NCBI GenBank assembly: GCA_021845905.1
Contig: JAJZVA010000017.1
Span: 1 to 32,879, forward strand
Source of the DNA: Pseudomonadota bacterium
GTDB taxonomy: Bacteria > Pseudomonadota > Alphaproteobacteria > Micavibrionales > UBA2020
Direction of reading: 5' to 3'
DNA length: 32,879 nucleotides
Shown here: piece after piece, positions 9,030 through 32,879 of the stretch
How the letters are laid out: each line of letters opens with the position of its first letter
Numbering within the stretch: the first letter of the stretch is position 1
The notes under the pieces: generated by a model
Told to the model about the DNA's origin: nothing
What the model saw: only the letters and a program-made list of their open reading frames with translations
Database searches by the model: none
Position numbers and translations under genes: made by a program

Positions 9030-9062
9030 TATCCTGTACCCTACAGTCCTATAGGGTTTCTC

Positions 9063-9105
9063 AAAGTACAAAAAACCATTTATTTTATGACGTTATTTGT
9101 ACTTT
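9063..9105. repeat. Inverted repeat, possible integrase arm site
   Basis: AAAGTACAAA (9063-9072) is repeated inverted and exactly as TTTGTACTTT (9096-9105), separated by 23 bp of AT-rich sequence. It lies between the attachment core and the integrase gene, where arm-type binding sites are expected. Its function is inferred from position only. Confidence 0.45.
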
Positions 9106-9151
9106 TGTGTTTCTCCGTGTTTTTCAGAGTCACTTTACATCCCGCCGAAAT

Positions 9152-9202
9152 GGGGGTATCATAGGGGGTATAATGTTAATTTTCCCGCGTGGAGATACCC
9201 CC
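9152..9202 (+). promoter_or_regulatory. Integrase promoter with repeated GGGGGTAT boxes
   Basis: A consensus -10 box TATAAT (9169-9174) sits inside the second of two direct GGGGGTAT boxes (9152-9159 and 9164-9171), without a good -35 hexamer. GGGGGTATC (9152-9160) is also repeated exactly inverted as GATACCCCC (9194-9202), which covers the end of the Shine-Dalgarno and reaches the start codon. This could be an operator, or an mRNA stem that limits integrase translation. Confidence 0.45.
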
Positions 9203-9203
9203 A

Positions 9204-10424
9204 ATGCCCTTGACGGATACAGCCTGCAAGAACGCCAAAGCTCTAGAAAAAGCCTATAAAAAGGCAGATTCTCAAGGGCTATATCTTCAAATAATGCCCA
9301 ATGGGGCTAAATACTGGCGCTTAAAATACCGATTCCACGGCAAGGAAAAGGTGCTGGCGCTAGGGGTATATCCCGAAGTTTCGCTGGCCGAGGCGCGGTT
9401 CAAAAAGGACGATGCCCGTCGCCAACTGGCCGAGGGGCTTGATCCGTCCCTTGAAAAACAGAAGCAAAAGCAACTGGCCTCGATAAGCGCGGAAACGACC
9501 TTTGAGGCCGTGACCCGTGAATGGCACGCGCTGAATACGGAGAAATGGTCATCGAACTACGCCGCCGACCTGTTGCACCGGATGGAAAGCGATATTTTCC
9601 CCGCTATCGGCGCTGTACCCATAGCGTCGATTACCGCACCGCACCTGCTATCCGTTATGAAACAGGTTGAAAAGCGCGGGGCGTTGGAAATTGCCCGCCG
9701 CCTTTTGCAGACATGCAGTCAGGTATTCCGCTATGCCATTGTTACGGGCCGGATGGACAGGAACCCCGCCGCCGACCTGAAAGGAGCTTTGAAGCCGCCG
9801 AAAAAAGAACACTATGCGGCGCTGGAAGCCAAAGACCTGCCGGAATTTTTGCAGGCGCTTGAACGGAACGATGCCCGCCTATATCAATACACGCGCCATG
9901 CCATCAAGCTGATGATGCTGACATTTGTCCGCACAAGCGAACTCATTAACGCAAGCTGGAAAGAACTTGATTTTGAGGCGAAGCAATGGAATATCCCTGC
10001 TGAACGCATGAAAATGAGAAAGCCGCACATCGTCCCGCTTTCGCGGCAGGCGCTGGAAGTGCTGGAAGTCCAAAAGGAACTGACCGGAAAATGGCAATGG
10101 GTATTCCCCAATCAGGTGCGCCCCATAAAATCCATGAGCAACAATACAATCCTCAAAGCGCTTGAGCGCATGGGTTATAAAGGCCGCATGACGGGCCACG
10201 GCTTCCGCGCTCTGGCTATGTCCACGATCAAGGAACAACTGCATTACAGGCATGAAGTCGTTGACCGTCAACTGGCCCACGCGCAGCGCAACAGCGTTGA
10301 TGCCGCCTATGACCGCGCCAAATTCCTCGTTGAGCGCAAAAAGATGATGCAGGACTGGGCCGATTATCTCGATGCCGTGGCCTCGCAGGGCAAAGTTATT
10401 GTTGGTAAGTTTTGTGAGGGGTAA
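9204..10424 (+). CDS. Tyrosine recombinase/integrase, DUF4102 type
   Basis: A 406-residue site-specific integrase of the P4/CP4-57 class. The N-terminal DUF4102 arm-binding domain (MPLTDTACKNAKALEKAYK, then GLYLQIMPNGAKYWRLKYR) spans about residues 1-90, a SAM-like core-binding domain about 98-200, and the catalytic domain follows. All catalytic positions are visible: R243 (FVRTSEL), H332 and R335 (GHGFRALA), H359 (QLAHAQ) and nucleophile Y369 (AAYDRA). The family is usually about 400 residues, so it is full length. ATG 9204 is chosen because GGAG lies 9 bases upstream and the family begins MPLTDT; a GTG at 9189 is also in frame. It is adjacent to tRNA-Ser, its likely target. Confidence 0.95.
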   Translation: MPLTDTACKNAKALEKAYKKADSQGLYLQIMPNGAKYWRLKYRFHGKEKVLALGVYPEVSLAEARFKKDDARRQLAEGLDPSLEKQKQKQLASISAETTFEAVTREWHALNTEKWSSNYAADLLHRMESDIFPAIGAVPIASITAPHLLSVMKQVEKRGALEIARRLLQTCSQVFRYAIVTGRMDRNPAADLKGALKPPKKEHYAALEAKDLPEFLQALERNDARLYQYTRHAIKLMMLTFVRTSELINASWKELDFEAKQWNIPAERMKMRKPHIVPLSRQALEVLEVQKELTGKWQWVFPNQVRPIKSMSNNTILKALERMGYKGRMTGHGFRALAMSTIKEQLHYRHEVVDRQLAHAQRNSVDAAYDRAKFLVERKKMMQDWADYLDAVASQGKVIVGKFCEG

Positions 10425-10624
10425 GCTATGCAGAAACACAGGAAAACAGAAGTTTAACCACCGTCCGGTATCTGCTACCATACCAACATGAATGACAACG
10501 CGCTCCACGTGATGTCGGGTAAATTCGCGCTTTTCTCGTAGGGTCATCTTACCGACCCCTTTGAACACGGATAAAGACGGGCAGAATAAGTATTGCAGAG
10601 TCATGAACTCGAAACGAATTAAAT

Positions 10625-11255
10625 ATGACACAAACAATTGAAAAGCCAAACATTATAAGTTTTTTCCAGACAATGTGGGGAATTACGGGCTCAAAAATGA
10701 GCGGAATTTTTTCTGTCCCCTTCGCGGCGCTGGCCGTTTTTTTGCCAGATCATGGTCGCCTTATATGGACTGTTTTGGCCGTAACGTCGATTGTTATTGC
10801 TTTCTATTTAGCATGGGTGGAAGAAAGAAAAAAAAGTTATTGAACTTGCCAATCGCCTTAACCCCAATATTCCTATGACGCTGCTATGGCCGGTGGCCGC
10901 CGAGGATGGCTTTAGAGTGGCCCTATTGCACGTTGTAAATGACAGCGGACAAACGGTAGAAAACTGTCAAGTAAGTATGCAGGGAAGCTATTTATGCCCT
11001 CCTTTTAACTTGAGGCCCGGTGAAGCGAGACACATTCCGATAGTCCATGAAGGGCTGCGAGAAGATAATCACCCCTATATAAGCGTTCATACTTACCGCA
11101 AAGATCACGATGCGTGGAGAGAAAGCGAAGTAGGCTGGGTACCACGTGAAGGCAATTATGATATAAGGCTATTATCAGATCACCTTCCGCCTGTAGAAGG
11201 CAGAATCAGTATTTCATATAATGGAAAGTGGCTCATTGAGCAGTTACAGCTATGA
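10625..11255 (+). pseudogene. Two-TM membrane protein gene split by a poly-A frameshift
   Basis: Two consecutive frames encode one protein. The first (10625-10843, 72 aa) starts MTQTIEKPNIISFF, has two hydrophobic segments (about 28-40 and 46-63), and ends just after EERKKSY. The second frame opens within the same region. Skipping one base in the run of eight A (10828-10835) continues VEERKK into VIELANRLNPNIP and then MTLLWPVAAEDG, giving about 210 residues with a soluble C-terminal domain of beta character. That continuation has normal protein composition. It could be a sequencing error, a real mutation, or programmed slippage on A8. I do not recognise the family. It is the only cargo of the tRNA-Ser islet. 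Confidence 0.65.
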
Positions 11256-11268
11256 CTTCTTAAGAAGT
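11255..11268. repeat. 14-bp perfect palindrome at the end of the split gene
   Basis: ACTTCTTAAGAAGT begins at the last base of the stop codon of the second frame. It has no T-tract of note, so it is a poor terminator, and may be a protein-binding site near the islet's right end. Confidence 0.35.
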
Positions 11269-11379
11269 TCAGGAACGTACAGGGGCAGCCAGACTTTTTC
11301 AGCATAAAACTGTGTATATATTTTCTTGTTATCTATAAAATAAACACAAACATTCAGTATCTTAAGCGAAAAGTTAGGC

Positions 11380-11396
11380 TCCCTCCGTCCCGCCAT
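11380..11396 (+). repeat. Candidate distal attachment site of the tRNA-Ser islet
   Basis: TCCCTCCGTCCCGCCAT matches the tRNA-Ser 3' end (9012-9029) except for one deleted T. It falls in an AT-rich gap just before chromosomal-looking sequence resumes. The deletion means it would not rebuild a perfect tRNA, as expected for the non-functional end of an islet. Confidence 0.5.
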
Positions 11397-11424
11397 CGCT
11401 TTGTCCGGCACATTCGAAAAGCGC

Positions 11425-11994
11425 CTAAGCCATTGCATTCAGGTTCGTTTGCGCGGCATTGCCCGTATCCGTAACGGCACGGTTGCTTGCGAGAGAGGTT
11501 ACGCCGGCGCCTTTGCCGTGCATATGGTCATGCTGGCGGTGCGGCTGACCCTGTATCTGGTTTTGGGCGACTGTCGGTGGCGTTGTCGTTGTAGTGGTCG
11601 TGCCGTTTGCATAGGTTGTGATGGTTATGGTCGAACCGTCGGCGTTTGTTTCCACGGTGACTTGCGGCTGGGCGTTCGCCGCCGCAGAAGCGGATGCATT
11701 TTGTGCTCCGCCTGATCCTGAGGCATTGGAGCTGCTTTGGCCGGTCATCGCTTGCAAGACATTTTGCATGGACAGGCTGGATGTGGAAGATGATGCGCCG
11801 CAACAGATGCCGCCGCCTGCCTTGCCCGCATTGGGCGTTGAGGCCGAAGCGGATACGCCCTGGCTTAAAAAACTTTCGATCATTTGCAGAAGATTTGCAT
11901 CTGACGTCGCGCTGCTCCCTTGCGCGGAGGAGGTGTTTTGCTGCCATGCCTGCGCTTGCGCGAGATAACTGGCAAGACTGTTGATGTGTGTCAT
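11425..11994 (-). CDS. Ser/Thr/Ala-rich low-complexity protein, unknown
   Basis: A 189-residue protein beginning MTHINSLASYLAQAQAW. It has a short helical N terminus (LLQMIESFLSQGV around 35-47), then Ser/Ala/Gly-rich segments, a Cys pair in GGICCGAS, and a Thr-rich beta-like stretch (VETNADGSTITITTYANGT and seven T in a row near 135). There is no signal peptide or membrane segment. The ATG has a good GGAG 7 bases upstream, which supports it as a real gene. The composition resembles surface-exposed or secreted repeat-type proteins, but no family is recognised. Confidence 0.6.
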   Translation of the reverse strand: MTHINSLASYLAQAQAWQQNTSSAQGSSATSDANLLQMIESFLSQGVSASASTPNAGKAGGGICCGASSSTSSLSMQNVLQAMTGQSSSNASGSGGAQNASASAAANAQPQVTVETNADGSTITITTYANGTTTTTTTPPTVAQNQIQGQPHRQHDHMHGKGAGVTSLASNRAVTDTGNAAQTNLNAMA

Positions 11995-12246
11995 GAAAAA
12001 CTCCGTTTATGGCCAGACCTGCCGCTTATCAAAACGTGAAAGCATCAGGCGCATGACAGGAACCCGGTGCGCCAAGGGATGTATATGCAAGTATCATGCC
12101 GCGCGGCGTCTTTTTAAATTATTGATATATATTGATATTTCAGGAAAAGAAAGAACGCCTGCGCGGGCATAAATTGCCGTACCCGGCAAAAGTTTTCTTT
12201 TAAAAGATAAAACCGTCTTTCATCGTATCTTTCTGGACAGAAAAAA

Positions 12247-17865: not shown

Positions 17866-19866
17866 GTGAAATACAGGCGTGAAATAGATGGTTTGCGGGC
17901 TTTAGCCGTTATTCCAGTAATTCTTTTTCATGCCGGCGTTCCGGCTTTCAAGGGAGGCTTTGTCGGCGTCGATGTGTTCTTCGTTATCAGCGGCTACCTT
18001 ATCACATCGGTTATCATCGCTGAAAAAGAAGCGGGCACATTTTCCCTCGTAAATTTCTATGAACGCAGAATGCGGCGTATATTGCCCGCATTATTTCTGA
18101 TGATGGCGGTTTGCATTCCCTTTGCCTGGCGGTGGCTGCTGCCGGCCGAGATGCGGGAATTCTCAGAGAGCATTACAACGGTCTCTTTATTCGTATCGAA
18201 CATATTTTTTCTTCACAGGGTCGGATACTTCGATACCTCTGTCGAACTGAAGCCTTTGATTCACACGTGGAGCCTGGCTGTTGAAGAGCAGTTCTATGTT
18301 TTGTTTCCGTTGTTCCTGATGTGGGCGTGGAAATGGGGCAAAAAGCGTATAATTGCAATACTGGCGGTGTTGGCCGTTATCAGCCTGGCCGGCGCGCAGT
18401 GGGGCGCGTACTATAGGCCTGAAGCGACGTTCTACCTTCTTCCGTCGCGCGCGTGGGAGCTTATCATCGGCGCGTTTATCGCATTCTACTTTTCCGGCCA
18501 TCCTGACGGGGTTTCCTGCAACCGGCTCGTTCGGCAATGCGCCGGTTTGACTGGCCTGGCGCTTATTCTTTATGCGGCAGTTTCTTTTGACAAAGGCACT
18601 CCCTTTCCCAGTCTCTATGGGCTTGTGCCGACGTTCGGCGCCGCCTTGATTATCATATTTTCATCTCCAGACACATGGGCGGGAAAGCTTTTGGGGAGCA
18701 GGCCGTTTGTCGCCATAGGACTGATAAGCTATAGCGCTTATTTGTGGCATCAGCCCATATTCGCCTTCGCAAGATACAGATGCCTGACCGAGCCGGGTCT
18801 CCCCATGATGCTGGCTCTTTCTTGCGGCTCGCTCGTTCTTGCTTATTTCAGCTGGAGGTTTGTCGAACAGCCGTTTAGGCGGAAAGGCCTGATCAGCAGG
18901 ACAAGAATATTCAAGTTTGTTATCATCGCGTCCGCGGTCTTTATAACCTTCGGTACGGCGGGGCTTTCATACAACGGTTTCCAATTCCGCTTTGGGAAGA
19001 ATTCGGCGATGGCGCAAGACTTCTCCCCGAACAAGCTGGAGACATACTGCAGGGGCGGCCATCACTATCATAGAAATAAATGGTATATAAAGCCCTGTAT
19101 TATAGGTGATAAAAACACGAAGTCCGCCCCCTCTGTCGCGATATTCGGCGACAGCCACGCGCAGGCGTTGTTGCCGGCATTCGACGCATTGGGAAAAAAA
19201 TACCATGAGGCCGTCGTTTTTATGGGCTTTGGGGGCTGTCCGCCGTTGCTGGGCGCCGATGTCATGAAAGGGAACTTCGATATCGGCGCTTGTGACGAGC
19301 TGTCAAGAAAGCAGTACGCGTATGTAAAGAAAAACAATATCAAAAAAGTTTTTCTGGTCGCCCGTTGGAGCCTTTATACGGATGGAGAATACGATACAAG
19401 GATGACGAAGTTTTTCCTTGTGTCAAAAAACAACAGGACACTTTCGGAAACGGGTTCCCGCAAGGTATTCATACGGACGCTGGAAGCCACGGTCAGGGCA
19501 TATAAGAAACTTGGCGCTCAGGTGTTCGTCGTTCTGCAGATTCCACAACAATCCGCCAACCCGAAATATCTTTATGCGCGCATCCAGGCCAACGGAATTA
19601 CCGGTACGCGGGAGGCCGCTGAGGAAGTCAGAAAGTTTTCTATCCCGCTTGATAAAAATCTCGGTTTGCAATCGTTTGAACGGGCTGAATTCAAAAAATT
19701 GACGGATAAAAAAATGATCAAGGTCGTGGATCTTGACTCTTTTTTTTGCAAGGCGTCCATTTGCCTGATGGGTAATAAGTCTGAATCTTATTATTTGGAT
19801 AGAAATCATTTAAACACGAACGGCGCAATGCGTGTCATGAGCGGCTTGGAGAGATATTTCAAGTAA
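17866..19866 (+). CDS. AT3-SGNH O-acyltransferase (OafA/YrhL family)
   Basis: A 666-residue inner-membrane O-acyltransferase that usually adds acetyl groups to cell-surface glycans such as LPS or peptidoglycan. The N-terminal acyltransferase-3 domain (about 1-365, ten or so TM segments) starts YRREIDGLRALAVIPVILFH with the conserved H22, and has GVDVFFVISGYLI. A C-terminal periplasmic SGNH domain follows, with FGDSHAQ (S430 nucleophile) and D645-x-x-H648 in DRNHLN. The length fits the AT3-SGNH class, and both active-site regions are intact. The start is GTG 17866 with only a weak AGACGG upstream. Lower G+C than the M16 neighbour suggests that surface-modification genes here are transferred often. 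Its stop overlaps by 8 bp the stop of the convergent SLATT-like gene. Confidence 0.93.
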   Translation: MKYRREIDGLRALAVIPVILFHAGVPAFKGGFVGVDVFFVISGYLITSVIIAEKEAGTFSLVNFYERRMRRILPALFLMMAVCIPFAWRWLLPAEMREFSESITTVSLFVSNIFFLHRVGYFDTSVELKPLIHTWSLAVEEQFYVLFPLFLMWAWKWGKKRIIAILAVLAVISLAGAQWGAYYRPEATFYLLPSRAWELIIGAFIAFYFSGHPDGVSCNRLVRQCAGLTGLALILYAAVSFDKGTPFPSLYGLVPTFGAALIIIFSSPDTWAGKLLGSRPFVAIGLISYSAYLWHQPIFAFARYRCLTEPGLPMMLALSCGSLVLAYFSWRFVEQPFRRKGLISRTRIFKFVIIASAVFITFGTAGLSYNGFQFRFGKNSAMAQDFSPNKLETYCRGGHHYHRNKWYIKPCIIGDKNTKSAPSVAIFGDSHAQALLPAFDALGKKYHEAVVFMGFGGCPPLLGADVMKGNFDIGACDELSRKQYAYVKKNNIKKVFLVARWSLYTDGEYDTRMTKFFLVSKNNRTLSETGSRKVFIRTLEATVRAYKKLGAQVFVVLQIPQQSANPKYLYARIQANGITGTREAAEEVRKFSIPLDKNLGLQSFERAEFKKLTDKKMIKVVDLDSFFCKASICLMGNKSESYYLDRNHLNTNGAMRVMSGLERYFK

Positions 19867-20503
19867 TCTTTACGGAGGTTGTCTTAACAGCAATCACGCC
19901 GTTATCAGCGTTATCTTTGATGAAATATATGATTTTCAAAGGAGAAAACCCATCAAAGGAAATAAGATTGCTCAGCCACCGCCTCCAACATGGGATACCT
20001 TCTAAAACATCATTCTTCCCTCGCGCTAGGCGTTCTTCGTTATCGCATATAGCAACCAACAACGTCAGGAAGGTCGGTTCATCCTTCTCAATTAAAATCC
20101 GCTCAGCCGTCCATTTCGCAAGATTATTGGCTGTGGACTGGCCCAACTTCATATCTTTAAGAAGAAAAGAAAACCGTTTCAAAAGAGCGTCATACTGTTG
20201 ACTCTTTCTGGAGAACCCGACAACTAAATCGCATGATGCTGAAACCGCAACAATAGCTGACAGCCAGATTGCAATGTGGTGACTATCTCCCGATAACAGA
20301 GCGGTAACAGCCGCGCTTCCGCTAATAGCAGAAATGGCATCTGACCCGCAATGCAGGTTTTCAAAGAATCGCCGCCGTTTGGAATGATAACGGATTGACT
20401 TACTTACAGCAAAATCAAGATTACTTATGCCTCGATCTATTTCTTCTTGTTTACCGGTGGCACTCCCTCCGGAGGAGGTCTTGTGTCCGCTATTCTGGGG
20501 CAT
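19859..20503 (-). CDS. SLATT-like two-TM protein
   Basis: A 214-residue protein with the layout of SLATT-type 2-TM effector-domain proteins. An N-terminal helix has SIRYHSKRRRFFENLH (37-51), two TM segments follow (about 55-71 and 76-97), and then a cytoplasmic helical region with RKSQQYDALLKRF, EKDEPTFLTLL and CDNEERLARG. Families of this type are linked to nucleotide-signalled defence and to mobile DNA, and are thought to act by damaging the membrane; that role here is inference. ATG 20503 has AGGA 6 bases upstream. It overlaps the small upstream gene by 67 bp. Its last codons contain a repeat also found beyond the window's decayed integrase, so the C terminus may have been created by element insertion. 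Confidence 0.6.
   Translation of the reverse strand: MPQNSGHKTSSGGSATGKQEEIDRGISNLDFAVSKSIRYHSKRRRFFENLHCGSDAISAISGSAAVTALLSGDSHHIAIWLSAIVAVSASCDLVVGFSRKSQQYDALLKRFSFLLKDMKLGQSTANNLAKWTAERILIEKDEPTFLTLLVAICDNEERLARGKNDVLEGIPCWRRWLSNLISFDGFSPLKIIYFIKDNADNGVIAVKTTSVKIT
19896..19915. repeat. 20-bp direct repeat, left copy
   Basis: ACGCCGTTATCAGCGTTATC occurs here and again at 22265-22284. Similarity extends to about 36-39 bp with 4-5 mismatches, from CAGCA on the left to TTGATNAAA on the right. This copy lies in the 3' end of the SLATT-like gene (residues KDNADNG). Confidence 0.7.
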
Positions 20504-20730: not shown

Positions 20731-20758
20731 TTGCCAACACTCCTCTTTCTGGTAAAGT
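20731..20758 (+). promoter_or_regulatory. Candidate promoter of the structured leader
   Basis: TTGCCA (20731-20736, 5/6), 16 bp, TAAAGT (20753-20758, 4/6). A start near 20765 would put the whole fold at 20815-20953 in the transcript. This is a weak match, offered because it is correctly placed. Confidence 0.35.
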
Positions 20759-20814
20759 ATTGTCACGACTGTGTGGATTCCATGCCGAATCAGGTATGAG
20801 CGTCTGCACTGTCT

Positions 20815-20953
20815 GGAGCTTGAAAACTCCGCATCTGGCGGTTTTGTGAACCGCAAAATCACTCCTCGACTATGGTCGGGGAGGCATACGTTTATATAAC
20901 AGCTCGCAAGAGTGAAGGCGTATGCGGTCACCCAGATGTGGCTTTTCAACTCC
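20815..20953 (+). ncRNA. Multibranched structured RNA element, class not recognised
   Basis: A long closing helix pairs 20815-20818 with 20950-20953, 20820-20826 with 20943-20949, and 20829-20838 with 20932-20941 (21 pairs, one G-T wobble, small interruptions). Inside are three hairpins: 20839-20843/20849-20853, a 9-bp stem 20862-20870/20875-20883 with a TATG loop, and 20884-20890/20919-20925 capped by a short CTC/GAG stem with a GCAA tetraloop (20906-20909). Such a four-way junction is unlikely by chance. It ends 22 bases before the ATG of the secreted-protein gene, so a cis-acting leader is one reading; an independent RNA or a DNA-level structure are others. The fold also exists on the minus strand, so strand is inferred. 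Confidence 0.6.
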
Positions 20954-20975
20954 CCGATCACCAGAGGGATACCAC

Positions 20976-21569
20976 ATGAAAAGCCGTTCTTATTTTTTTA
21001 TTATTTGCATCTGCGCCATACTCTTTTTGCCAAGAATTTCTCAAGCGCAGACAGACTTCCAGCTTAGAACAATGCCGGATGGAAGCATTGAACAATACGA
21101 TGCCACCCAAGGCCGTTGGAATTTTAGAATTTGGCCAGATGGACACTCGGCTATGTTTTTCCCCTCCGATAACAAGTGGACGATAAACCCAGCATCAAAA
21201 AACTCGTGGAAAGTTATGCCTGACGGTACCCTTGAAGGAGTAGATGGAGATGGAAAAACGATAAGGCAGTTACAAAATGGAAATGTTGAGGTTCTAAAAA
21301 AAGTTTCCATTCTCGGTATTTCACACAACAAATGGGAATTACTCATGACCGCACAACAGCGGAGACAGCGGAGAAACGAGGCTCAAGAAAAATGGCATCA
21401 ACAGGAACAAGCAGAAGAAAATCGCGAATACCACCAAAAAATGCTTGCAATTCAGGAAGAACAACTGCGCCAAATGCGGATGAGAAATTTTATGCAGGCC
21501 GTGCCACCTCCAACGATGACTAATTGCAACCCTGCTATTGGTGGTGGTGTTAGTTGTACATCATGGTAA
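20976..21569 (+). CDS. Secreted protein with PDG repeats, unknown
   Basis: A 197-residue exported protein. A Sec signal peptide (1-23: KSRSYFF, a hydrophobic core, then SQA-QT) is followed by short repeats with a turn motif: TMPDGSIEQYD, IWPDGHSAMF, VMPDGTLEGVD, LQNGNVEVL, each a likely beta-hairpin of about 20-25 residues. A charged Gln/Glu/Arg coiled coil spans about 120-165. The C terminus has two cysteines, in NCNPAIGGG and SCTSW. ATG 20976 is chosen over the in-frame ATG at 20922 because GAGGGA lies 7 bases upstream and the signal peptide starts there; the earlier start would lie in the structured element. No family is recognised. Confidence 0.65.
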   Translation: MKSRSYFFIICICAILFLPRISQAQTDFQLRTMPDGSIEQYDATQGRWNFRIWPDGHSAMFFPSDNKWTINPASKNSWKVMPDGTLEGVDGDGKTIRQLQNGNVEVLKKVSILGISHNKWELLMTAQQRRQRRNEAQEKWHQQEQAEENREYHQKMLAIQEEQLRQMRMRNFMQAVPPPTMTNCNPAIGGGVSCTSW

Positions 21570-22125
21570 GGAATGTTGTTGAAGTTACCTGCCCTTCTTG
21601 CGAAGTCTGATAAGCATTTTCAATTTTGACTGTGGCCTGAACGGTATCACTCTCAACCACACCGACATAGTATTTTTCTAGCATTTTAAGGCTACTCCAA
21701 CCCATCAGTGCCGCAAGGGTTTTAGGCGGTACCCCTGCGCTTGCTGCGTATGTGGCACAGGTGGCGCGTAGATCGTGTATCCGTATGTCTTTAATGCCCG
21801 TTTTGTCTCGTAACCCATCCCAAGCTCTTGACAAGGTAATCACAGGATAAAGCCTGAAAAGGTCTTCCAGTTGCTCCCAAGTGAAAGATACCAGCTTTCC
21901 GGCCTTTATTTCGAGGTATGAGCCAGCTTTATAGCTTTTGCATTGGTATACAGCCCCGTGTGGTAGACGTATTTTAAGCCATGCTGTAATGCCCCGTTCA
22001 CCTGCGCGTATACCAATGCCTCGGATATAGCGTGGACGGTTTAAAGTCTGCCCTTTGATAGAGTTAAGCAGTTCATCGTATTCGGCATACTTACGCTTTC
22101 TGCCTTTCGGTGTTTGTAGTTCCAT
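21550..22125 (-). pseudogene. Tyrosine integrase with internal deletion
   Basis: 191 residues made of two pieces of a normally 400-residue integrase. The N-terminal part (about 1-88; RKRKYAEYDELLN, RGIGIRAGERGITAWLKIRL) is the arm-binding domain. It jumps near LFRLYPVITLSRAW to the C-terminal part with H-x-x-R (IHDLRATCATYAAS), LMGWSSLKMLEKYY and the nucleophile Tyr. The core-binding domain and the box I catalytic Arg are missing, so it cannot recombine alone. The reading frame is kept across the junction and the start is intact, with a perfect AGGAGG 6 bases before ATG 22125. It might still bind att DNA. It diverges from the intact integrase, across the tRNA-Gly core. Confidence 0.8.
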
Positions 22126-22200: not shown

Positions 22201-22222
22201 AAATGCACACGAAATGCACACG
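22201..22222. repeat. 11-bp tandem repeat with TGCACA, possible arm sites
   Basis: AAATGCACACG occurs twice in tandem (22201-22211, 22212-22222). TGCACA recurs on the other side of the att core at 22431 and 22442, also with an 11-bp period. The sites lie about 100 bp from the core, a fitting place for integrase or accessory-protein binding. Confidence 0.5.
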
Positions 22223-22264
22223 AATAACGAGGAAAAAACCCTGTATCAGCCTATAGCAGCAGTA

Positions 22265-22284
22265 ACGCCGTTATCAGCGTTATC
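22265..22284. repeat. 20-bp direct repeat, right copy
   Basis: Identical to 19896-19915 over ACGCCGTTATCAGCGTTATC. It lies 32 bp left of the tRNA-Gly fragment. Read on the minus strand it would encode KDNADNG as in the SLATT-like gene, but here no gene surrounds it. Confidence 0.7.
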
Positions 22285-22316
22285 CTTGATAAAACATAGG
22301 AAATAAAAGGAAAAAA

Positions 22317-22336
22317 TGGAGCGGGTGAAGGGATTC
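22317..22336 (-). repeat. tRNA-Gly 3'-end fragment, attachment core
   Basis: On the minus strand this reads GAATCCCTTCACCCGCTCCA: end of the T loop, T-stem 3' strand, acceptor 3' strand CACCCGC, a T discriminator and CCA, matching bacterial tRNA-Gly of the GCGGGTG acceptor type. Similarity stops there and no tRNA body follows, so it is an integration scar. The intact tRNA-Gly should lie at the other end of an element, outside this window. Confidence 0.7.
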
Positions 22337-22428
22337 ACATAAATAACTATAAATAAACAATATTTTCTGCTATACTTACCTATACAGAACCTACACAGGT
22401 ACGGCAAAACAAGCACTTACGCCGCCAA

Positions 22429-22449
22429 TCTGCACAGTTTCTGCACAGT
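22429..22449. repeat. Tandem TCTGCACAGT repeat before the integrase
   Basis: TCTGCACAGT occurs at 22429-22438 and 22440-22449 (period 11). It shares TGCACA with the tandem repeat at 22201-22222. It lies at the integrase ribosome-binding site, so a protein bound here would also block expression. Confidence 0.5.
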
Positions 22450-22462
22450 GGGAGGTGAAGAG

Positions 22463-23758
22463 ATGCAGTTCATTATTGATAAGGAGCAGTTGAAACCAGG
22501 CCTTATCATCTTCCGACGCGGCGATGTCGGGCACGACAATTATTATTGCCGCGTGAGAATCCAGAACGAGGACCGCTACAAGACCGTCTCACTGCGCACG
22601 GCGGACCGGCAGACGGCGCGCGACTACGCCCTGGATCAATATGCAGACATTCGCTTTCGGGTGAAGCACGACGTTCCCGTATTCAACCGCCCCTTCTCGC
22701 AGGTAGCGGAGGAATATGCCGAGGCGCAGCAGCGTCGTGCCAACGCCGGCGAGGTGAGCCAGGCGCGCGCGATGAACGTCAAAAACAAGATCGATGGCCC
22801 GCTCAATGCCTATGTCGGGACCACACAGGTGCATCTCATCACACAGGAGCGCTGGGCGGATTATCCCCTCTGGCGCAGGGAGAACGGCAAGGGCCGCCGC
22901 AATGGCATCATCAGCGATGCCACCATTCGTATTGAAATGGCGATCTTCGCCGCCATCATGAATTATGCAATTGGCAAACGCTATGTGCCCGCGAGCCATC
23001 GCTTCGAGGGGATGCCCAAGCTCAAAACCAACCGGCGCGACGAGTTCACGCTGGAGGAATACCGGGCATTACACACCAAAGGCCGCAAGTGGATCAGGGA
23101 AGCGACCACGCCGCAGGGCGAATGGTATCGTCAGATGTGCTACAACTTCATTCTTATCATGTGCAACACCGGGATGCGCCCGCCGGAAGCCAAGAACCTG
23201 CGCTGGCGTGACATCACCGGCGCCAAGGACAAGGACGGACAGGAAATCCTCGTCATCTATGTCCAGGGCAAGGGCAAGACGCGCAAGCTGATCGCGCCCA
23301 AGAGCGTCGGGAAATATCTGGATCGCGTCCGCAATCTTTCCAAGGCAACCAAGCCGGACGACCCCGTGTTCACGATCATCAACGGCAAGCCTGCGAAGTG
23401 GCTTTACCGAGATACGGTCGAGGAACTGCTCAAATACACCGAACTGCGCGAGGGACCGAGCGGCATTCCACGTACTACTTATTGCTTCCGCCACACCTAT
23501 GCCACGCTAAGGCTTTCCTCCGGGGTGGATGTTTATATCCTCGCCCAGCAAATGGGCACTTCGGTCAAGATGATCGAGCAGCATTATGGGCATGTGAATA
23601 CCATCAAGCATGCCGACCGCGTGCTCATGGGCATCGGCGGATGGGAAGAGATGCACGCCGAAATGGATGCCGAGGTCGAGGCAGAGGAGAAAACGGCAAA
23701 AGCCGCGGCCTCCATCAAGGCGAAACAGCCGGTGAAACCGCGCCGCCCCAAACGCTAG
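22463..23758 (+). CDS. Tyrosine recombinase/integrase of the mobilizable element
   Basis: A 431-residue site-specific recombinase. An N-terminal arm/DNA-binding part (about 1-75) and a SAM-like core-binding domain (about 76-185) are followed by the catalytic domain with R239 (NTGMRPPEAKNLRW), R343-H344 (YCFRHTYATLR) and nucleophile Y375 (EQHYGH). Box II has Tyr340 where most relatives have His (H-x-x-R); this is seen in some members and need not abolish activity. A Lys/Ala-rich tail closes the protein. The start is ATG 22463, with GGAGGTGA 4-5 bases upstream; the GTG at 22448 is in frame but lies before the Shine-Dalgarno. The gene runs away from the tRNA-Gly att core, as integrases of such elements do. 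Confidence 0.93.
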   Translation: MQFIIDKEQLKPGLIIFRRGDVGHDNYYCRVRIQNEDRYKTVSLRTADRQTARDYALDQYADIRFRVKHDVPVFNRPFSQVAEEYAEAQQRRANAGEVSQARAMNVKNKIDGPLNAYVGTTQVHLITQERWADYPLWRRENGKGRRNGIISDATIRIEMAIFAAIMNYAIGKRYVPASHRFEGMPKLKTNRRDEFTLEEYRALHTKGRKWIREATTPQGEWYRQMCYNFILIMCNTGMRPPEAKNLRWRDITGAKDKDGQEILVIYVQGKGKTRKLIAPKSVGKYLDRVRNLSKATKPDDPVFTIINGKPAKWLYRDTVEELLKYTELREGPSGIPRTTYCFRHTYATLRLSSGVDVYILAQQMGTSVKMIEQHYGHVNTIKHADRVLMGIGGWEEMHAEMDAEVEAEEKTAKAAASIKAKQPVKPRRPKR

Positions 23759-25052: not shown

Positions 25053-25238
25053 ATGACCACCACGACAGAAACAATGACTTCAAAAGCAAAACAGCCACCC
25101 GCCTTCTACATCTTCACGCAATCCAAGGACGGCAAGAACCAGCGCGTCGGCGCGGCCTTCCGCCACAGTAAGGGCAACGGTTTCAACGTCCTGATCGGCA
25201 ACACCCGCTACGTGGCCTTTCCCCCGAAAGCGAAGTGA
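25053..25238 (+). CDS. Small protein cotranscribed with the ArdC-like gene
   Basis: 61 residues (MTTTTETMTSKAKQPPAFY...). The second half (FYIFTQSKDGKNQRVGAAFRH, then GNGFNVLIGNTRYVAF) suggests a small beta-rich fold. AAGGAG lies 8 bases before ATG 25053, and the stop is 11 bp before the ArdC-like start, so the two form an operon. Similar short frames accompany ArdC genes on proteobacterial elements as far as I recall. Function unknown. Confidence 0.7.
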   Translation: MTTTTETMTSKAKQPPAFYIFTQSKDGKNQRVGAAFRHSKGNGFNVLIGNTRYVAFPPKAK

Positions 25239-25249
25239 GGAGAACCGCC

Positions 25250-26137
25250 ATGACACATCACGTCAAATCCGACATTTACACCCGCGTCACGGAGAAAATC
25301 ATCGCCGCCCTCGAACAGGGCGAGCGCACCTGGGTTCCGCGCTGGAACGCGGCGCACCAGGCGGGGCCGGTCTCGCGCCCCTTGCGGCAGAACGGCATCC
25401 CCTACAGAGGCATGAACGTGCTTCTGCTCTGGGCGGAGGCGATGGAGAAAGGCTATGCCGCGCCCATCTGGATGACCTTCAAACAGGCGCAGGAGCTCGG
25501 CGCACACGTCAAAAAGGGCGAGAAAGGCGCTCTGGTCGTTTACGCCAACACCGTCGACAAGACGGAAACAAACGAAAACGGCGAAGACATCGAGCGGAGA
25601 ATAGCCTTCATGCGCGGCTACACCGTGTTCAACGTCGAGCAAGTCGAAGGACTGCCGCAGCATTACTACGCAAAGCCTGCCGATCCCCTGCCGGTCACGG
25701 AACGCATGGCAGCCGTGGAGGATTACATCACGGCCACCGGCGCGGACATCCGCCATGGCGGAGACAGCGCCTACTACGCGCCCGGGCCGGACTTCGTGCA
25801 AATGCCGCAGTTCGAAACCTTCAAAGACAAGGAAGGCTATTACGCGACGCTCCTGCACGAGCTGGTGCACTGGTCCGGCGCGAAACGCCGCCTCGACCGC
25901 AGCTTCGGAGAAGGCAAGTTCGGCAACGAAGCCTACGCCCGCGAGGAGCTGGTGGCGGAACTCGGCGCGGCTTTCCTCTGCGCAGGTCTTAACATCACCC
26001 CCGAAGTCAGGGACGACCACGCCCCCTACATCGCAAGCTGGCTCGAAGTGCTAAAGCGCGACAAGCGGGCGATATTCAGCGCGGCTGCTCATGCGCAGCG
26101 GGCGGCGGATTATTTGGGTGGGTTGCAAAAGCAGTAG
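25250..26137 (+). CDS. ArdC-like antirestriction protein with zincin domain
   Basis: A 295-residue protein of the ArdC/DUF1738 family. The N-terminal ssDNA-binding domain (about 1-130) begins DIYTRVTEKIIAALEQGERTW and includes GIPYRGMNVLLLW. The C-terminal metallopeptidase-like domain has H203-E204-L-V-H207 (HELVHWSGAKRRLDR) and a downstream EELVAELGAAF helix that may give the third ligand. Known ArdC proteins bind single-stranded DNA entering a recipient and protect it from restriction. Here it would protect the element after mobilization. The start is ATG 25250 with GAGGAG about 8 bases upstream. The length is normal for the family. It is the last gene of a two-gene unit, ending at a possible terminator. 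Confidence 0.9.
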   Translation: MTHHVKSDIYTRVTEKIIAALEQGERTWVPRWNAAHQAGPVSRPLRQNGIPYRGMNVLLLWAEAMEKGYAAPIWMTFKQAQELGAHVKKGEKGALVVYANTVDKTETNENGEDIERRIAFMRGYTVFNVEQVEGLPQHYYAKPADPLPVTERMAAVEDYITATGADIRHGGDSAYYAPGPDFVQMPQFETFKDKEGYYATLLHELVHWSGAKRRLDRSFGEGKFGNEAYAREELVAELGAAFLCAGLNITPEVRDDHAPYIASWLEVLKRDKRAIFSAAAHAQRAADYLGGLQKQ

Positions 26138-27591: not shown

Positions 27592-29520
27592 CTATCTCCT
27601 CGCGTTGAACCATGCAGACGCCTTGGGTGGTGGCGTCGTTACCTTGACCTTCTGTTTCGGGTCGAAAGCGGATTTCCCTCCATCGGGCTGCAATCCTGCA
27701 CGGCGAAGGATTTCTTTGGTTTCAAGGACACTGGAGCGCAGGTTGACCGTTGCCATCGACGGATCGACCGGAGGACGCGGACGGGGCGTGAACACGGTTT
27801 TCAGAAGCTCGCTGTTGCTCTGCTGACGCAAACTTGCGCTATAGGCACGCTCGTCCAGCCGTTGTTCCGGGGGCGGAGGCATGACACTGACCTCCCATCG
27901 CGGGATGCCGTTCAGGGCATAGCTCATGTTCATGACGACGTCGTAAAACTGCCTGTTGGCTGCGCGTTTTCGCGCTTCTTCCTCCTGTCTGACCTGCAAC
28001 TCCGCATATTGCCGGATATATTCATTAAATTGCGCCTGTCGTTCCACGTATTCGCGCTCTCTATCCTGTGCGCGTGTTTCCCGTGTTTTTTCTTCTGTCT
28101 TTTTGAGATGAAGCGTTTCAAGCGTAACCTCAATCATGCGCCGGATCGCCGCGCCCATATCGTCGGAGATGAGATTACTCTCCAGTGCAGATTGCAACAT
28201 GGCAAGATTGCCGGAGAGCAGCGCGATTTTGCTTTGCACCTCGGCCATTTGTTCCTTGAGGGAGATAACATCGGCGGATTTAACGGTTTGTGGCTCCGTG
28301 GCCGTCGCCACATAGCCCGCAATCTCCCGCCGGATACGCAGAGCCTCGGCCTTTTGTTCTTCCTTGTAAACCTTGACGGTCTTTTGCAGTTCCTGCCGCT
28401 CCAGCAGGTGCGACCGCACGAGGTTATGAAGCTCCTGCCTGTCACGCTCCAGCGCTGATCGGGTCTCGGCCTCGTTTTGGGCGCGGACTTTTTTATACGC
28501 GCCTGAAGCCTTGTGCCAGATGCCGCGAAACCCGCGCGGCAGACGCGCCACGCGGGCATGCGTTTCCCGTGTCCAGCGTTCCTGTTGCCGGTCGATCAGT
28601 TCCTGACGCTCTTTGCGCTGCACCGCCACCATGGCGCGGATTTCGCGCACCAGCGGCTTGCGGATGTCTTTGGCGCGGGCGCGGGATTCCGCGAGATAGG
28701 TTTTTAAATTCTCGCTCATGCGGGCGGCGAGAAAATCCTTCGCCTGCCCGATGGCGGGCAGGTTTTCCGGTTTGCCAAGACGGGCTTTAAGGTCGCGCGT
28801 GCCGATGTCGAGCCATCTTGTGAGGGAATAGACGCCGCCTATAATGTCGAGCGCGACGAAGCCGCGCCGGTCGCCACGGGCGAGTAAAAAACCGCGCTCT
28901 TGCAGAGCGTGGGCAAAGGTTTCCTTGCTGTCGGACTGCTCCCACGCGCTTTTGAGCAGGGTTTTGAGCGCCTGCGGGTCTTGCGAGAAGCGCACAGCCT
29001 GCCTGTACTCATGGCGCGTCAACTGCCACGGGCTGCGATCAGACGCGCGTTGCATGCCCTTGGGCAGTTTCCAGCCATATTTAAGAAACAAAAAGCGCGA
29101 GATTTCCATGAGCTTCAGTTTGAAGTGACTCATGCGGATGGCGATCATCCGCTGCGCATGGTCCGACCATTTGAGTCGCGACCAGACGCAGTGGCAATGC
29201 CGCCGCCCGTTTTTCTCGTGAAACACGATGATGCGCGGCTGATCGACCAGACCCAGCTTTTTCTCTACGTCATCTATGGCAGATTCGAAGTCTTCGACAG
29301 GCACGTCGGCATATTCCGGCGGACTTAAAGAGAGCGAGAACATAAACTGGCGGCATTGCGTGCCGCGACTGATGGCCTCGATTTCCTGCAAGGCCCCCGC
29401 AAGATCGTCGGAGACGAAGCCGCGTATCTCGTGGACGGTGATATGGTCGTTTTCGTCACCATTCAGCAGGTGTTTGGCCAGTTCCCCGGTTCCTCTGCGC
29501 TGACTGGCCTTGAGGATCAT
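27592..29520 (-). CDS. Relaxase/mobilization nuclease (MOBP-like)
   Basis: A 642-residue relaxase that would nick oriT and lead the strand into a recipient. The N-terminal nuclease domain (about 1-200) shows the metal-binding motif H101...H108-x-H110 (VFHEKNGRRHCHCVW) and the conserved FVSDDLAGALQEIEA and QFMFSLSLSPPE. No Tyr occurs in the first 69 residues; H17 in AKHLLN sits where motif I Tyr is expected. A middle region and a long Glu/Arg/Gln-rich coiled coil (about 280-500) follow, and the C terminus has a Pro-rich tail. The start ATG 29520 overlaps the mobC stop by 4 bp. The family is by pattern; similar proteins occur widely on rhizobial and sphingomonad elements. Confidence 0.88.
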   Translation of the reverse strand: MILKASQRRGTGELAKHLLNGDENDHITVHEIRGFVSDDLAGALQEIEAISRGTQCRQFMFSLSLSPPEYADVPVEDFESAIDDVEKKLGLVDQPRIIVFHEKNGRRHCHCVWSRLKWSDHAQRMIAIRMSHFKLKLMEISRFLFLKYGWKLPKGMQRASDRSPWQLTRHEYRQAVRFSQDPQALKTLLKSAWEQSDSKETFAHALQERGFLLARGDRRGFVALDIIGGVYSLTRWLDIGTRDLKARLGKPENLPAIGQAKDFLAARMSENLKTYLAESRARAKDIRKPLVREIRAMVAVQRKERQELIDRQQERWTRETHARVARLPRGFRGIWHKASGAYKKVRAQNEAETRSALERDRQELHNLVRSHLLERQELQKTVKVYKEEQKAEALRIRREIAGYVATATEPQTVKSADVISLKEQMAEVQSKIALLSGNLAMLQSALESNLISDDMGAAIRRMIEVTLETLHLKKTEEKTRETRAQDREREYVERQAQFNEYIRQYAELQVRQEEEARKRAANRQFYDVVMNMSYALNGIPRWEVSVMPPPPEQRLDERAYSASLRQQSNSELLKTVFTPRPRPPVDPSMATVNLRSSVLETKEILRRAGLQPDGGKSAFDPKQKVKVTTPPPKASAWFNARR

Positions 29521-29900
29521 GGCCGCGCCTCCGGCGGAGGAAAACCGAGCGCCTGAGTAATATTATTGCGCATGGTCCTGATGTCCGTACAGGCGGCCAG
29601 AATAGCGGTCTCCGCCTCCGTCGAGACGGGATAGGAGCCGGAGTGAATGGCTCTGGCGATCTGGTTCAAGTTCGAGGACAGGCGCGACTGGCCGAGCCCA
29701 GCCAGAACAGCGCTAAGAAGCTGCTCGTCCTGCACCGGACGGCGGCGGCGCACGGTGCGCGGAGATGGTGCGTCAAATAACTGCCCCCGGATATAATCGC
29801 CGATGGTTTGCGTGCCCGCAGCCGCATCGAGCTTCGCCCGCTCTTCGGGCGTCAGGCGAATGGAGAACGTCGGCGCATATTTGCGTCTTTCGTCCGTCAT
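29517..29900 (-). CDS. mobC: MobC-like relaxosome accessory protein
   Basis: A 127-residue DNA-binding helper of the relaxase. The N-terminal half has a ribbon-helix-helix-like stretch (FSIRLTPEERAKLDAAAG, IGDYIRGQLF). The second half has the MobC signature NLNQIARAIHSGS, followed by a helix with IRTMRNNITQALG. MobC proteins bind oriT and help melt it around the nick. GGAGG (29905-29909 on the minus strand) precedes ATG 29900 by about 4 bases. It is the first gene of the operon mobC-relaxase-109 aa. A probable oriT lies upstream. Confidence 0.88.
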   Translation of the reverse strand: MTDERRKYAPTFSIRLTPEERAKLDAAAGTQTIGDYIRGQLFDAPSPRTVRRRRPVQDEQLLSAVLAGLGQSRLSSNLNQIARAIHSGSYPVSTEAETAILAACTDIRTMRNNITQALGFPPPEARP

Positions 29901-30660: not shown

Positions 30661-30802
30661 ACAACTACATACTATTGTATGATGATCTACCAGATTCAGC
30701 CGGCGGATTTATTGATCAAGTCCAAGCTTTCTGCCGATTCTTCCATTTTAAATAAAGTTTTAACCATCAGGGCATAGAATGAGGGGAATAACCACTTCGC
30801 TT

Positions 30803-30814
30803 TGCACCGGTGCA
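30803..30814. promoter_or_regulatory. Palindrome upstream of the RHS gene, possible operator
   Basis: TGCACCGGTGCA is a perfect 12-bp palindrome 54 bp before the RHS start codon. The following sequence TTTAAAATTTATACT may contain a -10 region. Binding protein unknown. Confidence 0.35.
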
Positions 30815-30868
30815 TGTCTGCGCCTTCTTTGCGCTTTGTTTAAAATTTATACTGCGGGGAGAATTTTG

Positions 30869-32879
30869 ATGGGCAAAATCTTTCATAAATTTTTCTGTTT
30901 CATTCGTTGTTTTCAGGGCATGGCATTTTCTATCGCCGTTTTTATATTCTTGTTCGCCACAGGTTCAGCTCACGCCATTATTCCCGCTTCATCCGGCAAT
31001 GTTGCTTTTTTGGGCATAGGTGCGCTCTCGGGATCAGTCCCTCAACAAAACAATGCGGGTACCGGCATAAAAAGCTTTAGTGCGGTGCGTCCCGCCGCAA
31101 CTAGCGGCGGATTAACGGCGATTCCGGGTGTACCTCTTTTTATAGCGAAGTATGAAGTGGTCAATGTATTCACTTGCGCGTCACTAGCCCCCGCATCCGC
31201 TAATGTTACAGTTCAGCCAACACATGGCGTCATTACGTTCAAAACCGTTGGCGGAACAGTGGATAAAGGCTTATGCCTTGGTCATACAGGAACATTCACC
31301 GCTGCTTATTACACATGGACTGATGTTTCTGCCCGTGCTGGAACAGCAGATTCATTTACTATCAAATGGTCGGATCCAGAGAACAGAATCCCTCCGTTTT
31401 ATGCTGACTATTCAGTTGTTCTCGGCAGTAATGGTCTTGATATAGCTAAGGCCCTTGGCATCTGCATCCCCTGTCTTGCAACAAAACAATCTGCCTCAGG
31501 CACATATAACCCATTGAGCAATGGAACTGTTGGCGGCGGGGATCCTTTTAATATCGGCATCGGCAACCAATTCGAAGAAGCCACCGACTACACGACCTCT
31601 GGCCGCAATCCTTTGCGGTTCGTGCGGTATTACAACAGCATGGCGGCGGATACGACGGACGCGACGGAGCTGGGGTCGAAATGGCGCGACAATTACGACC
31701 GGTATCTCGATGTTTCTGGCGGCACCGTCACGGCGGAGCGCGCGGACGGTCAGGTGCTGACCTTCACCAAGGATGCAAGCGGCAACTGGACGAGCGACAC
31801 GGACGTGGATTTGACGCTGACCAACGTCGCCGCCTCGTGGTACCTGACGGATCACAACGACACGGTGGAGACTTATTACCAGCCGTCGTCTTCGAGCACG
31901 GCTTATTTGCAGCGCATCGTCATGCGCGACGGCTACACGCGCGACCTCGCTTATAACGCGAACAATCAGCTCACATCGGTCACGGACAGCTTCGGGCGCA
32001 AGCTCGGCTTCGCTTACAACGGCACAGGGTTGCTGAGCCAAGTCACCACGCCGGACCAGCTCGTTTTGAGCTACGGCTATGATTCCAGCGGCGCGAACGG
32101 CAGCACGCTCGACCGTCTGACGTCGGTCTCCTACAACACCACGCCCGCGACGGACCGCATTTATTCGTATGTCAACAACTTCGATCTCGCCTCGATTACC
32201 GACGAAGACGGCAATGTTTACGCGCAATGGACGTATGACGACAAAGACCGCGCGACGTCGAGCCAGCACGCGGGCGGCGCGGGCAAAGTCACCATCTCCT
32301 ATGACTCCGACACGCAACGCACGGTCACGGGGCCGCTGGGGCAGCAGACGGTTTATACCTTCCAGACATTGCAGGGCGTGCCGAAGGTGGTGAAGATCGC
32401 GCGCACGGCGTCGGGCACCGTTCCGGCGGGCATGGAGAGCTTCACTTACGATTCCAACGGCTACATGGCGAGCAAGACGGACTGGAACGGCAACGTCACG
32501 GATTATATTAACGACGCACACGGCGACCCGACCAGCATCACCGTGGCGGCGGGAACGGCGCTGGCGCGCACGACGACAATCATTTACGGCGGCTCGGACG
32601 GACGCCAGCCGGGGCAGATCGCCGAGCCGAATCTCACCGCCCACTACACTTACGACAGGCACGGCAACATGGTGATCTCGCAGGAGACGGACATGTCTTC
32701 CGCCAACCAGGGGTTCCGCACGTGGACTTACACCTATGACCTTCTGGGCCATATGCTGACCATGACCGACCCGCGCGGCAACGTCACGACCTATACCTAC
32801 GACGGCGACAACCTCGCGACAATCACCAACGCGCTCGGGCAAACGTCGAAGATCACGTCTTACAACGCGAGCGGCCTGC
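30869..32879 (+). CDS. Secreted RHS/YD-repeat protein, 5' part
   Basis: A frame open from ATG 30869 to the window edge (670 codons). A signal peptide (residues 1-36; GKIFHKFFC..., ending SAHA-II) is followed by a region resembling an Ig-like domain (ANVTVQPTHGVITF, DSFTIKWSDPE; about 110-180), then from about residue 235 the RHS entry domain (DYTTSGRNPLRFVRYYNSM) and many YD repeats (YDDKDRAT, YDRHGNMV, YTYDGDNLATITN). Such proteins form a hollow shell around a C-terminal toxin or effector, which would lie beyond the window. AGGAG-like GGGGAGA lies 6 bases before the ATG. The N-terminal 220 codons are AT-rich, and the rest GC-rich. Secreted by Sec, so not a type VI cargo as such. Confidence 0.85.
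   Translation, partial: MGKIFHKFFCFIRCFQGMAFSIAVFIFLFATGSAHAIIPASSGNVAFLGIGALSGSVPQQNNAGTGIKSFSAVRPAATSGGLTAIPGVPLFIAKYEVVNVFTCASLAPASANVTVQPTHGVITFKTVGGTVDKGLCLGHTGTFTAAYYTWTDVSARAGTADSFTIKWSDPENRIPPFYADYSVVLGSNGLDIAKALGICIPCLATKQSASGTYNPLSNGTVGGGDPFNIGIGNQFEEATDYTTSGRNPLRFVRYYNSMAADTTDATELGSKWRDNYDRYLDVSGGTVTAERADGQVLTFTKDASGNWTSDTDVDLTLTNVAASWYLTDHNDTVETYYQPSSSSTAYLQRIVMRDGYTRDLAYNANNQLTSVTDSFGRKLGFAYNGTGLLSQVTTPDQLVLSYGYDSSGANGSTLDRLTSVSYNTTPATDRIYSYVNNFDLASITDEDGNVYAQWTYDDKDRATSSQHAGGAGKVTISYDSDTQRTVTGPLGQQTVYTFQTLQGVPKVVKIARTASGTVPAGMESFTYDSNGYMASKTDWNGNVTDYINDAHGDPTSITVAAGTALARTTTIIYGGSDGRQPGQIAEPNLTAHYTYDRHGNMVISQETDMSSANQGFRTWTYTYDLLGHMLTMTDPRGNVTTYTYDGDNLATITNALGQTSKITSYNASGL

What the first reader, a model, noticed from the sequence alone, without database searches (positions are those of the whole stretch)
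22201..22449. Two integrative elements abutting at one tRNA-Gly attachment core
A 20-bp tRNA-Gly 3' end (22317-22336) has no tRNA body. A deleted integrase points left and an intact one points right. TGCACA appears twice in 11-bp tandem on each side (22204, 22215; 22431, 22442), about 100 bp from the core. Arm-type sites on both sides are unusual for a single attL or attR and fit tandem integration at the same tRNA gene.
Basis: partly seen in the sequence, partly recalled or inferred. Interest (0 to 1): 0.6.

Follow-up and report, generated by a model that had tools for sequence, protein, structure and literature searches.

The report
Two mobile elements sharing one tRNA-Gly
A mobile DNA element that inserts at glycine tRNA genes has landed in front of the decayed remains of an older, unrelated element at the same tRNA, leaving a hybrid joint; this is a known way in which bacterial genomes pile up foreign DNA, seen here in a new pair of elements.

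Summary
The right half (22317 onward) is the left end of a mobilizable element, B. B's integrase has 28 named relatives; all 28 carry GCGGGTGA 141-142 bp before the start codon, followed by 11-bp-spaced arm pairs. Nineteen of 26 genomes searched hold the matching right end. Of 21 such right ends, 17 abut an intact tRNA-Gly (11 CCC, 6 GCC), one a truncated tRNA-Gly, three no tRNA. In the window's own genome the only right end found abuts the host tRNA-Gly(GCC), on contig C22. So the missing tRNA body lies at B's far end, off this contig. The left half is the tRNA-side end of an unrelated element, A, whose integrase lacks about 200 residues in frame. A's one relative among 55 genomes starts about 200 bp downstream of tRNA-Gly(GCC), with an 11-bp repeat pair at the same 95-bp distance from the tRNA end. 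The two TGCACA pairs belong to two different arm systems. Not shown: A's far end, the C5-C22 join, any excision. B's lineage also inserts into protein genes through the same 8-bp core. New member of a known kind: tandem accretion at a tRNA gene.

The parts
22317..22336 (-). Shared attachment core, displaced tRNA-Gly(GCC) 3' end; the conserved part is TGGAGCGGGTGA (22317-22328), minimal GCGGGTGA (22321-22328)
22463..23758 (+). IntB, full-length tyrosine integrase of element B (upstream in-frame start GTG at 22448 also possible)
   Evidence: Pfam Phage_integrase 2.9e-10; 28 named relatives
22381..22399 (+). Outer pair of presumed IntB arm sites (TATACAG AAC CTACACAGG, 11-bp spacing)
   Evidence: outer pair found in 27 of 28 relatives by a fixed regular expression
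22431..22447 (+). Inner pair of presumed IntB arm sites (TGCACA-N5-TGCACA)
   Evidence: exact in 22 of 28, relaxed form in 28 of 28 relatives
22204..22220 (+). Presumed arm pair of element A (read with intA: GTGTGCATTTCGTGTGCA)
   Evidence: same place and 11-bp spacing as GTGGGG pairs of three A-type relatives
21550..22125 (-). IntA remnant: tyrosine integrase of element A with an in-frame loss of about 200 residues; the first Arg region and the middle of the protein are missing
22254..22316 (-). 63-bp diverged copy of the 3' end of the gene at 19859-20503, directly beside the core; origin unexplained
   Evidence: 81% over 64 bp, E 9e-13
25235..26137 (+). ArdC-like antirestriction protein, B cargo/backbone
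   Evidence: ArdcN and MPTase-PolyVal
27592..29520 (-). MobA/VirD2-type relaxase of B
   Evidence: PF03432 2.2e-9
29517..29900 (-). Probable MobC/NikA-type accessory protein
   Evidence: PF05713 and PF21983, both just below Pfam cut-off
30779..32879 (+). RHS/YD-repeat gene of B, cut by the contig end; RHS core and C-terminal tip sequence lies on C22

Best explanation
A chimeric attachment site made by tandem accretion. Step 1 (inferred): element A inserted at the 3' end of the host tRNA-Gly(GCC) gene, with its integrase gene next to the tRNA. Step 2 (shown): intA lost about 200 residues in frame, so A cannot move by its own integrase. Step 3 (supported): mobilizable element B inserted at the same tRNA 3' end, between the tRNA and A, by IntB-catalysed exchange inside GCGGGTGA. 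The tRNA was rebuilt at B's right end (contig C22) and its old 3' end was left behind at B's left end (22317), now touching A. The junction therefore carries A's arm pair on one side and B's two arm pairs on the other. Mechanism (inferred from known tyrosine integrases): IntB binds the YTRCACAG arm pairs at both of B's ends and the core, and excises B by recombining 22317 with the tRNA-Gly copy, which would put the tRNA back against A.
For: B left end: GCGGGTGA at -141/-142 in 28 of 28 relatives, TGGAGCGGGTGA in 24 of 28; different host DNA to its left in the relatives. B right end: pattern in 19 of 26 genomes, 21 places, reversed-pattern control 0; 17 of 21 abut intact tRNA-Gly. In G000 one left end and one right end, at tRNA-Gly(GCC) on C22. 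RHS N-terminal part runs off C5, RHS core and tip sequence lies at C22's end, facing it. Sister genomes: G002 has the empty tRNA-Gly(GCC) site, G004 has the same tRNA with B's right end, and the flank of its left end matches the G002 site. A: G027 has an A-type integrase start 203 bp downstream of tRNA-Gly(GCC), repeat pair 95 bp from the tRNA end as here.
Against: A's far end and second core were not found; with up to 2 mismatches the core occurs only at C5 and three tRNA-Gly genes. C5 and C22 are not joined by sequence; the C5 end also resembles the end of C26 (88%) and the C22 end is a dispersed repeat. Genes next to the empty site in G002 lie on C15, C20 and C25 of G000, so the region is rearranged. 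The DNA next to the core on A's side is a diverged copy of a nearby gene's 3' end, which would also fit B sitting in a coding gene. A-type integrases in G385 and G087 sit beside fragments resembling tRNA-Val and tRNA-Pro (my reading of the printed sequence), so A-type is not tied to tRNA-Gly.
Confidence: 0.84

Rival explanations
1. B inserted into a protein-coding gene, not at the tRNA. The 63 bp left of the core would be the cut-off 3' end of a gene related to 19859-20503, and B's right end would lie elsewhere.
For: The 63-bp copy ends at the core. IntB-family elements do insert in coding genes: joining the flanks restores a 299-codon ROK-like frame (L055), a 316-codon frame with an AraC-like end (G002) and a 197-codon frame (G004).
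Against: The only B right end found in this genome abuts tRNA-Gly(GCC). The left junction carries TGGAGCGGGTGA, while the left ends at the G002 and G004 coding-gene sites keep the local bases (CTCTCGCGGGTGA, TTGGCGCGGGTGA). An A-type arm region at the same distance follows.
Confidence: 0.08
2. One element only: the left half is B's own other end, so the site is an attP-like joint of a circular or tandemly repeated B.
For: TGCACA-N5-TGCACA on both sides of one core, same orientation; real B right ends also carry such a pair in that orientation.
Against: The B right end has a distinct sequence, in the C22 copy 59 bp between core and pair, here 96 bp; BLAST of it to the window finds only the 26-bp core region. 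An integrase remnant of another family lies directly beyond.
Confidence: 0.03
3. The A remnant is an old integrase relic that reached this place by rearrangement; it never used this core.
For: Flank genes of the tRNA are scattered in this genome; no A cargo found in 55 relatives by DNA.
Against: Repeat position, spacing and integrase start relative to the tRNA 3' end agree with G027 (95 bp and 95 bp to the repeat; 191 and 203 bp to the start codon).
Confidence: 0.05

Closest known systems
IME_Sag2603_tRNAlys in tandem with a decayed ICE, Streptococcus agalactiae (PMC5704250, section 2.3 read)
   Same: IME next to the tRNA 3' end, decayed element beyond, a chimeric attI between them, unrelated tyrosine integrases with different att sites.
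   Different: tRNA-Gly not tRNA-Lys, alphaproteobacterium, different integrases; excision was tested there, not here.
CIME/ICE tandem accretion, ICESt1-related elements of Streptococcus thermophilus (Pavlovic 2004; seen only in reference lists and in PMC5704250)
   Same: Integration, decay, then accretion of a newcomer at the shared att site.
   Different: Target and integrases differ; A's second att site is not found here.
ssrA genomic islands of Dehalococcoides (PMC3146451, passages read)
   Same: Tandem islands marked by 20-bp copies of an RNA gene's 3' end.
   Different: Serine recombinases and tmRNA there.
ICEclc family (search listing only; tRNA-Gly target recalled)
   Same: Tyrosine integrase element at tRNA-Gly 3' ends.
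   Different: IntB was not compared with IntB13; conjugative there, only mobilizable here.
SGI1 (PMC2297512, abstract read)
   Same: IME with a preferred site, a secondary site and tandem arrays.
   Different: thdF target; arrays are of identical copies.

Membership tests
Integrative and mobilizable element (B) | Own site-specific integrase at one end | tested here: met
Integrative and mobilizable element (B) | Defined ends and empty site | tested here: met
   For the family: L055 flanks restore a 299-codon frame with a 6,220-bp element between the cores; G002 empty site versus G004. For this copy the two ends lie on two contigs.
Integrative and mobilizable element (B) | Relaxase and oriT | tested here: inconclusive
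   Relaxase domain met; oriT not looked for
Integrative and mobilizable element (B) | No conjugation machinery of its own | tested here: inconclusive
   None among the ORFs scanned, but part of B is missing between contigs
Integrative and mobilizable element (B) | Excision and transfer | not testable with these tools
   needs cells or reads
Tandem accretion at a shared att site | Two unrelated integrases on either side of one core | tested here: met
Tandem accretion at a shared att site | Intact target gene at the outer end of the newer element | tested here: met
   tRNA-Gly(GCC) on C22 with B's right end; linkage to C5 inferred
Cis-mobilizable element (A) | Integrase lost | tested here: met
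   about 200 residues missing
Cis-mobilizable element (A) | Both att sites kept | tested here: not met
   no second core within 2 mismatches outside tRNA genes and C5; a shorter or more diverged core would be missed

The most novel reading that the evidence does not exclude
The junction works as a composite site for IntB: A's arm repeat, GTGGGG in three A-type relatives, reads TGCACAC here, close to IntB's own YTRCACAG. IntB could then bind on both sides of the core, so that the dead element A has become a passenger that IntB can move together with B.
Probability: 0.07. Interest if true: 0.55.

Novelty: new member of a known kind. Interest (0 to 1): 0.3.

Why it matters
It gives a clear case of accretion at tRNA-Gly in a lineage related to the window's host, with both partners defined at the junction. 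It also outlines an integrase lineage, shared by Sphingomonadales and other proteobacteria, that uses an 8-bp core to enter tRNA-Gly genes of three anticodons as well as protein genes; this makes its att sites and insertion sites predictable by pattern search. Specialists would find it orderly rather than surprising.

Tried and rejected
Single-element reading (attP-like joint of B): rejected. Chance core or chance repeats: rejected. tRNA-Ser island spanning to this point: no second copy of the tRNA-Ser 3' end at up to 3 mismatches. Placing A's far end through the genes beside the empty site in G002: failed, these lie on three other contigs of G000. Synteny through the M16 peptidase: only the peptidase itself matched in the four contigs fetched. 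(tRNA pattern) was badly designed, a gap set too long, and missed even the host tRNA; its zero counts mean nothing. IntB in plasmids (E 1e-40) and phages (E 1e-20): no match. A by DNA in 55 relatives: own genome only. G004 right end at C32 (L105) and left end at C1 (L061): no restored partner shown; one search prints only the longest frame per pair and there missed the L038/L106 pair, which one search then showed. IntB relatives in the viral contigs were not searched.

Full report
Observation. Every coordinate of the finding is right. The 20-bp stretch 22317-22336 is unique in the window and not expected by chance. No tRNA is found there. TGCACA-N5-TGCACA occurs exactly twice in the window, once on each side of the core, against 0 expected, while the single hexamer is not enriched. 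The window is the whole of contig C5 of a 2.42-Mb genome in 26 contigs, G000.

The host tRNA. G000 has tRNA-Gly genes with anticodons TCC (C8), CCC (C7) and GCC (C22). The GCC gene ends GAATCTCTTCACCCGCTCCA, one mismatch from the window core. No other near copy of the 18-base query exists in the assembly at up to 2 mismatches besides these tRNA ends and the window.

Right half: element B, left end. The rightward integrase (P0001) has 28 named relatives in one scan: MAGs, Sphingomonadales, Elioraea, Albimonas, Caulobacter and others. Twenty-two of the 28 listed cover all 431 residues or nearly so at 86-99% identity; the rest include pieces cut by contig ends. In 28 of 28, GCGGGTGA stands 142 bp (141 in one) before the start codon; in 24 of 28 it is TGGAGCGGGTGA. 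The inner pair TGCACA-N5-TGCACA is exact in 22 of 28 and present in a relaxed form in 28 of 28; the outer pair is found in 27 of 28. The DNA left of the core differs between relatives, except that L038 and L062 share a site (143 of 180 flank positions identical).

Right half: element B, right end. In Caulobacter RI_161 (L055) a second core lies 6,220 bp from the first. Joining the outer flanks restores a 299-codon frame that I read as a ROK-family protein (recalled), so TGGAGCGGGTGA was the target. That right end carries its own TGCACA-N5-TGCACA pair. The same arrangement appears on C22 of G000, directly behind tRNA-Gly(GCC). A pattern built on it hits 19 of 26 genomes that hold B relatives, 21 places in all, reversed-pattern control 0. 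Seventeen of the 21 abut an intact tRNA-Gly, 11 CCC and 6 GCC; L157 abuts a tRNA-Gly cut after the anticodon; L142, L143 and L161 abut no tRNA. By BLAST, G005 adds one at tRNA-Gly(TCC) and G004 one at a non-tRNA place with core GAGCGGGA. Some of these genomes are the same MAGs seen under two handles (G055/G002, G056/G004, G069/G014, judged by equal contig lengths), so the counts are places, not independent events.

Coding-gene targets. Three pairs of flanks restore open frames when joined at GCGGGTGA: L055 (299 codons), G002 contigs C63 and C101 (316 codons, with an AraC-like end) and G004 contigs C31 and C21 (197 codons). In the last two the left junction keeps local bases before GCGGGTGA, which places the exchange inside those 8 bp.

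Which B is in the window. G000 has one full IntB; its other eight hits are other integrases at 29-36% identity. It has one B right end, on C22. C5 ends inside an RHS/YD-repeat gene running right; C22's end carries an RHS core and tip (Tlde1 domain) running toward the tRNA. So B most likely runs from 22317 through C5's end, an unassembled RHS stretch, and C22:12128 to 9035. The join is inferred: the C5 end is 88% like the end of C26, and the last 126-135 bp of C22 are a dispersed repeat. Sister genomes show the site in other states. G002 has tRNA-Gly(GCC) followed by a small ORF and genes I read as guaA and guaB (recalled names). G004 has B's right end at the same tRNA, and its left-end flank on C24 carries the same small ORF.

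Left half: element A. The leftward ORF keeps residues matching both ends of a tyrosine recombinase and lacks about 200 residues between. Among 55 relatives its only match is G027, where the gene starts 203 bp after an intact tRNA-Gly(GCC). Among 385 genomes of the class it matches 3, itself included. Upstream of all four genes there is an 11-bp direct repeat: GTGTGCATTTCGTGTGCA in the window, GTGGGGATATTGTGGGG in G027, GTGGGGATTTGGTGGGG in G385, GTGGGGATACGGTGGGG in G087. In the window and in G027 it begins 95 bp from the tRNA 3' end. So the left TGCACA pair is A's own arm repeat in position, with different letters. In G385 and G087 the gene lies beside sequence I read as 3' halves of tRNA-Val and tRNA-Pro, so A-type elements use tRNAs but not always tRNA-Gly.

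Mechanism. A inserted first, decayed, and B then entered between tRNA and A. The shown steps are B's ends, B's target at tRNA-Gly, the empty and filled sites in sister genomes, and the deletion in intA. The order of events, arm-site binding and B's excision are inferred. A similar joint is found in 1 of 28 relatives' left flanks: Sphingopyxis sp. LK2115 (L054) has a P4-type integrase 220 bp beyond B's core, pointing away; L038 and L062 have a recombinase-like stretch pointing toward the core (four integrase queries, 3 kb of flank or what the contig held).

Comparison. The review of IMEs (PMC5704250, section 2.3 read) describes such structures: IMEs frequently in tandem with generally decayed elements, and a tRNA-Lys case with a chimeric attI between a decayed ICE and an IME with unrelated tyrosine integrases. 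PMC3146451 (passages) describes tandem islands at ssrA. PMC2297512 (abstract) describes secondary sites and arrays of SGI1. PMC11963761 (passages) gives five arm-type sites in a 283-bp attP of a Mesorhizobium ICE, comparable with the several arm repeats here. Five paper searches listed no paper that I recognised as describing the IntB family; this is a weak negative.

Verdict. Supported as tandem accretion at tRNA-Gly(GCC), with a corrected reading of the two repeat pairs. Ordinary in kind.

Noticed in passing
22254-22316 and 19885-19947: The 63 bp between the core and A's arm pair are a diverged copy (81%, E 9e-13) of the 3' end of the weakly SLATT-like gene 19859-20503; how it came to end at the core is unexplained.
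   Followed up: partly
8936-10424: tRNA-Ser(GCT) followed by a P4-type integrase with full Arm-DNA-bind_3 domain; no second copy of the tRNA 3' end in the window, so this island has no visible far end.
   Followed up: partly
L065 (C22) 9118-9786: A short tyrosine recombinase (190-222 aa, no N-terminal domain) lies inside B's right end, pointing inward, so B may carry two recombinases.
   Followed up: no
L065 (C22) 9870-11632: RHS core and tip with a Tlde1 domain, followed by a small ORF: probably an antibacterial effector and immunity pair carried by B.
   Followed up: no
L065 (C22) 12003-12128: Terminal 126-135 bp are a dispersed repeat in G000 (C19), G002, G004 and G005 (79-98%), at or near several contig ends; nature unknown.
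   Followed up: partly
20731-20967: About 237 bp repeated at 88% in G000:C25:59212-59450.
   Followed up: no
L054 1073-2191: In Sphingopyxis sp. LK2115 a P4-type integrase sits 220 bp beyond B's displaced core and points away from it: the same kind of chimeric joint with another partner.
   Followed up: yes
G004 contigs C1, C24, C31 (left ends); C7, C13, C21, C32 (right ends): One sister genome holds several B copies, at tRNA-Gly(GCC), tRNA-Gly(CCC) and coding sites; contigs break inside intB because of the copies.
   Followed up: partly
L157 (Sphingopyxis indica DS15) near 1587-1660: tRNA-Gly(GCC) behind B's right end is cut after the anticodon, so this host tRNA copy looks destroyed.
   Followed up: no
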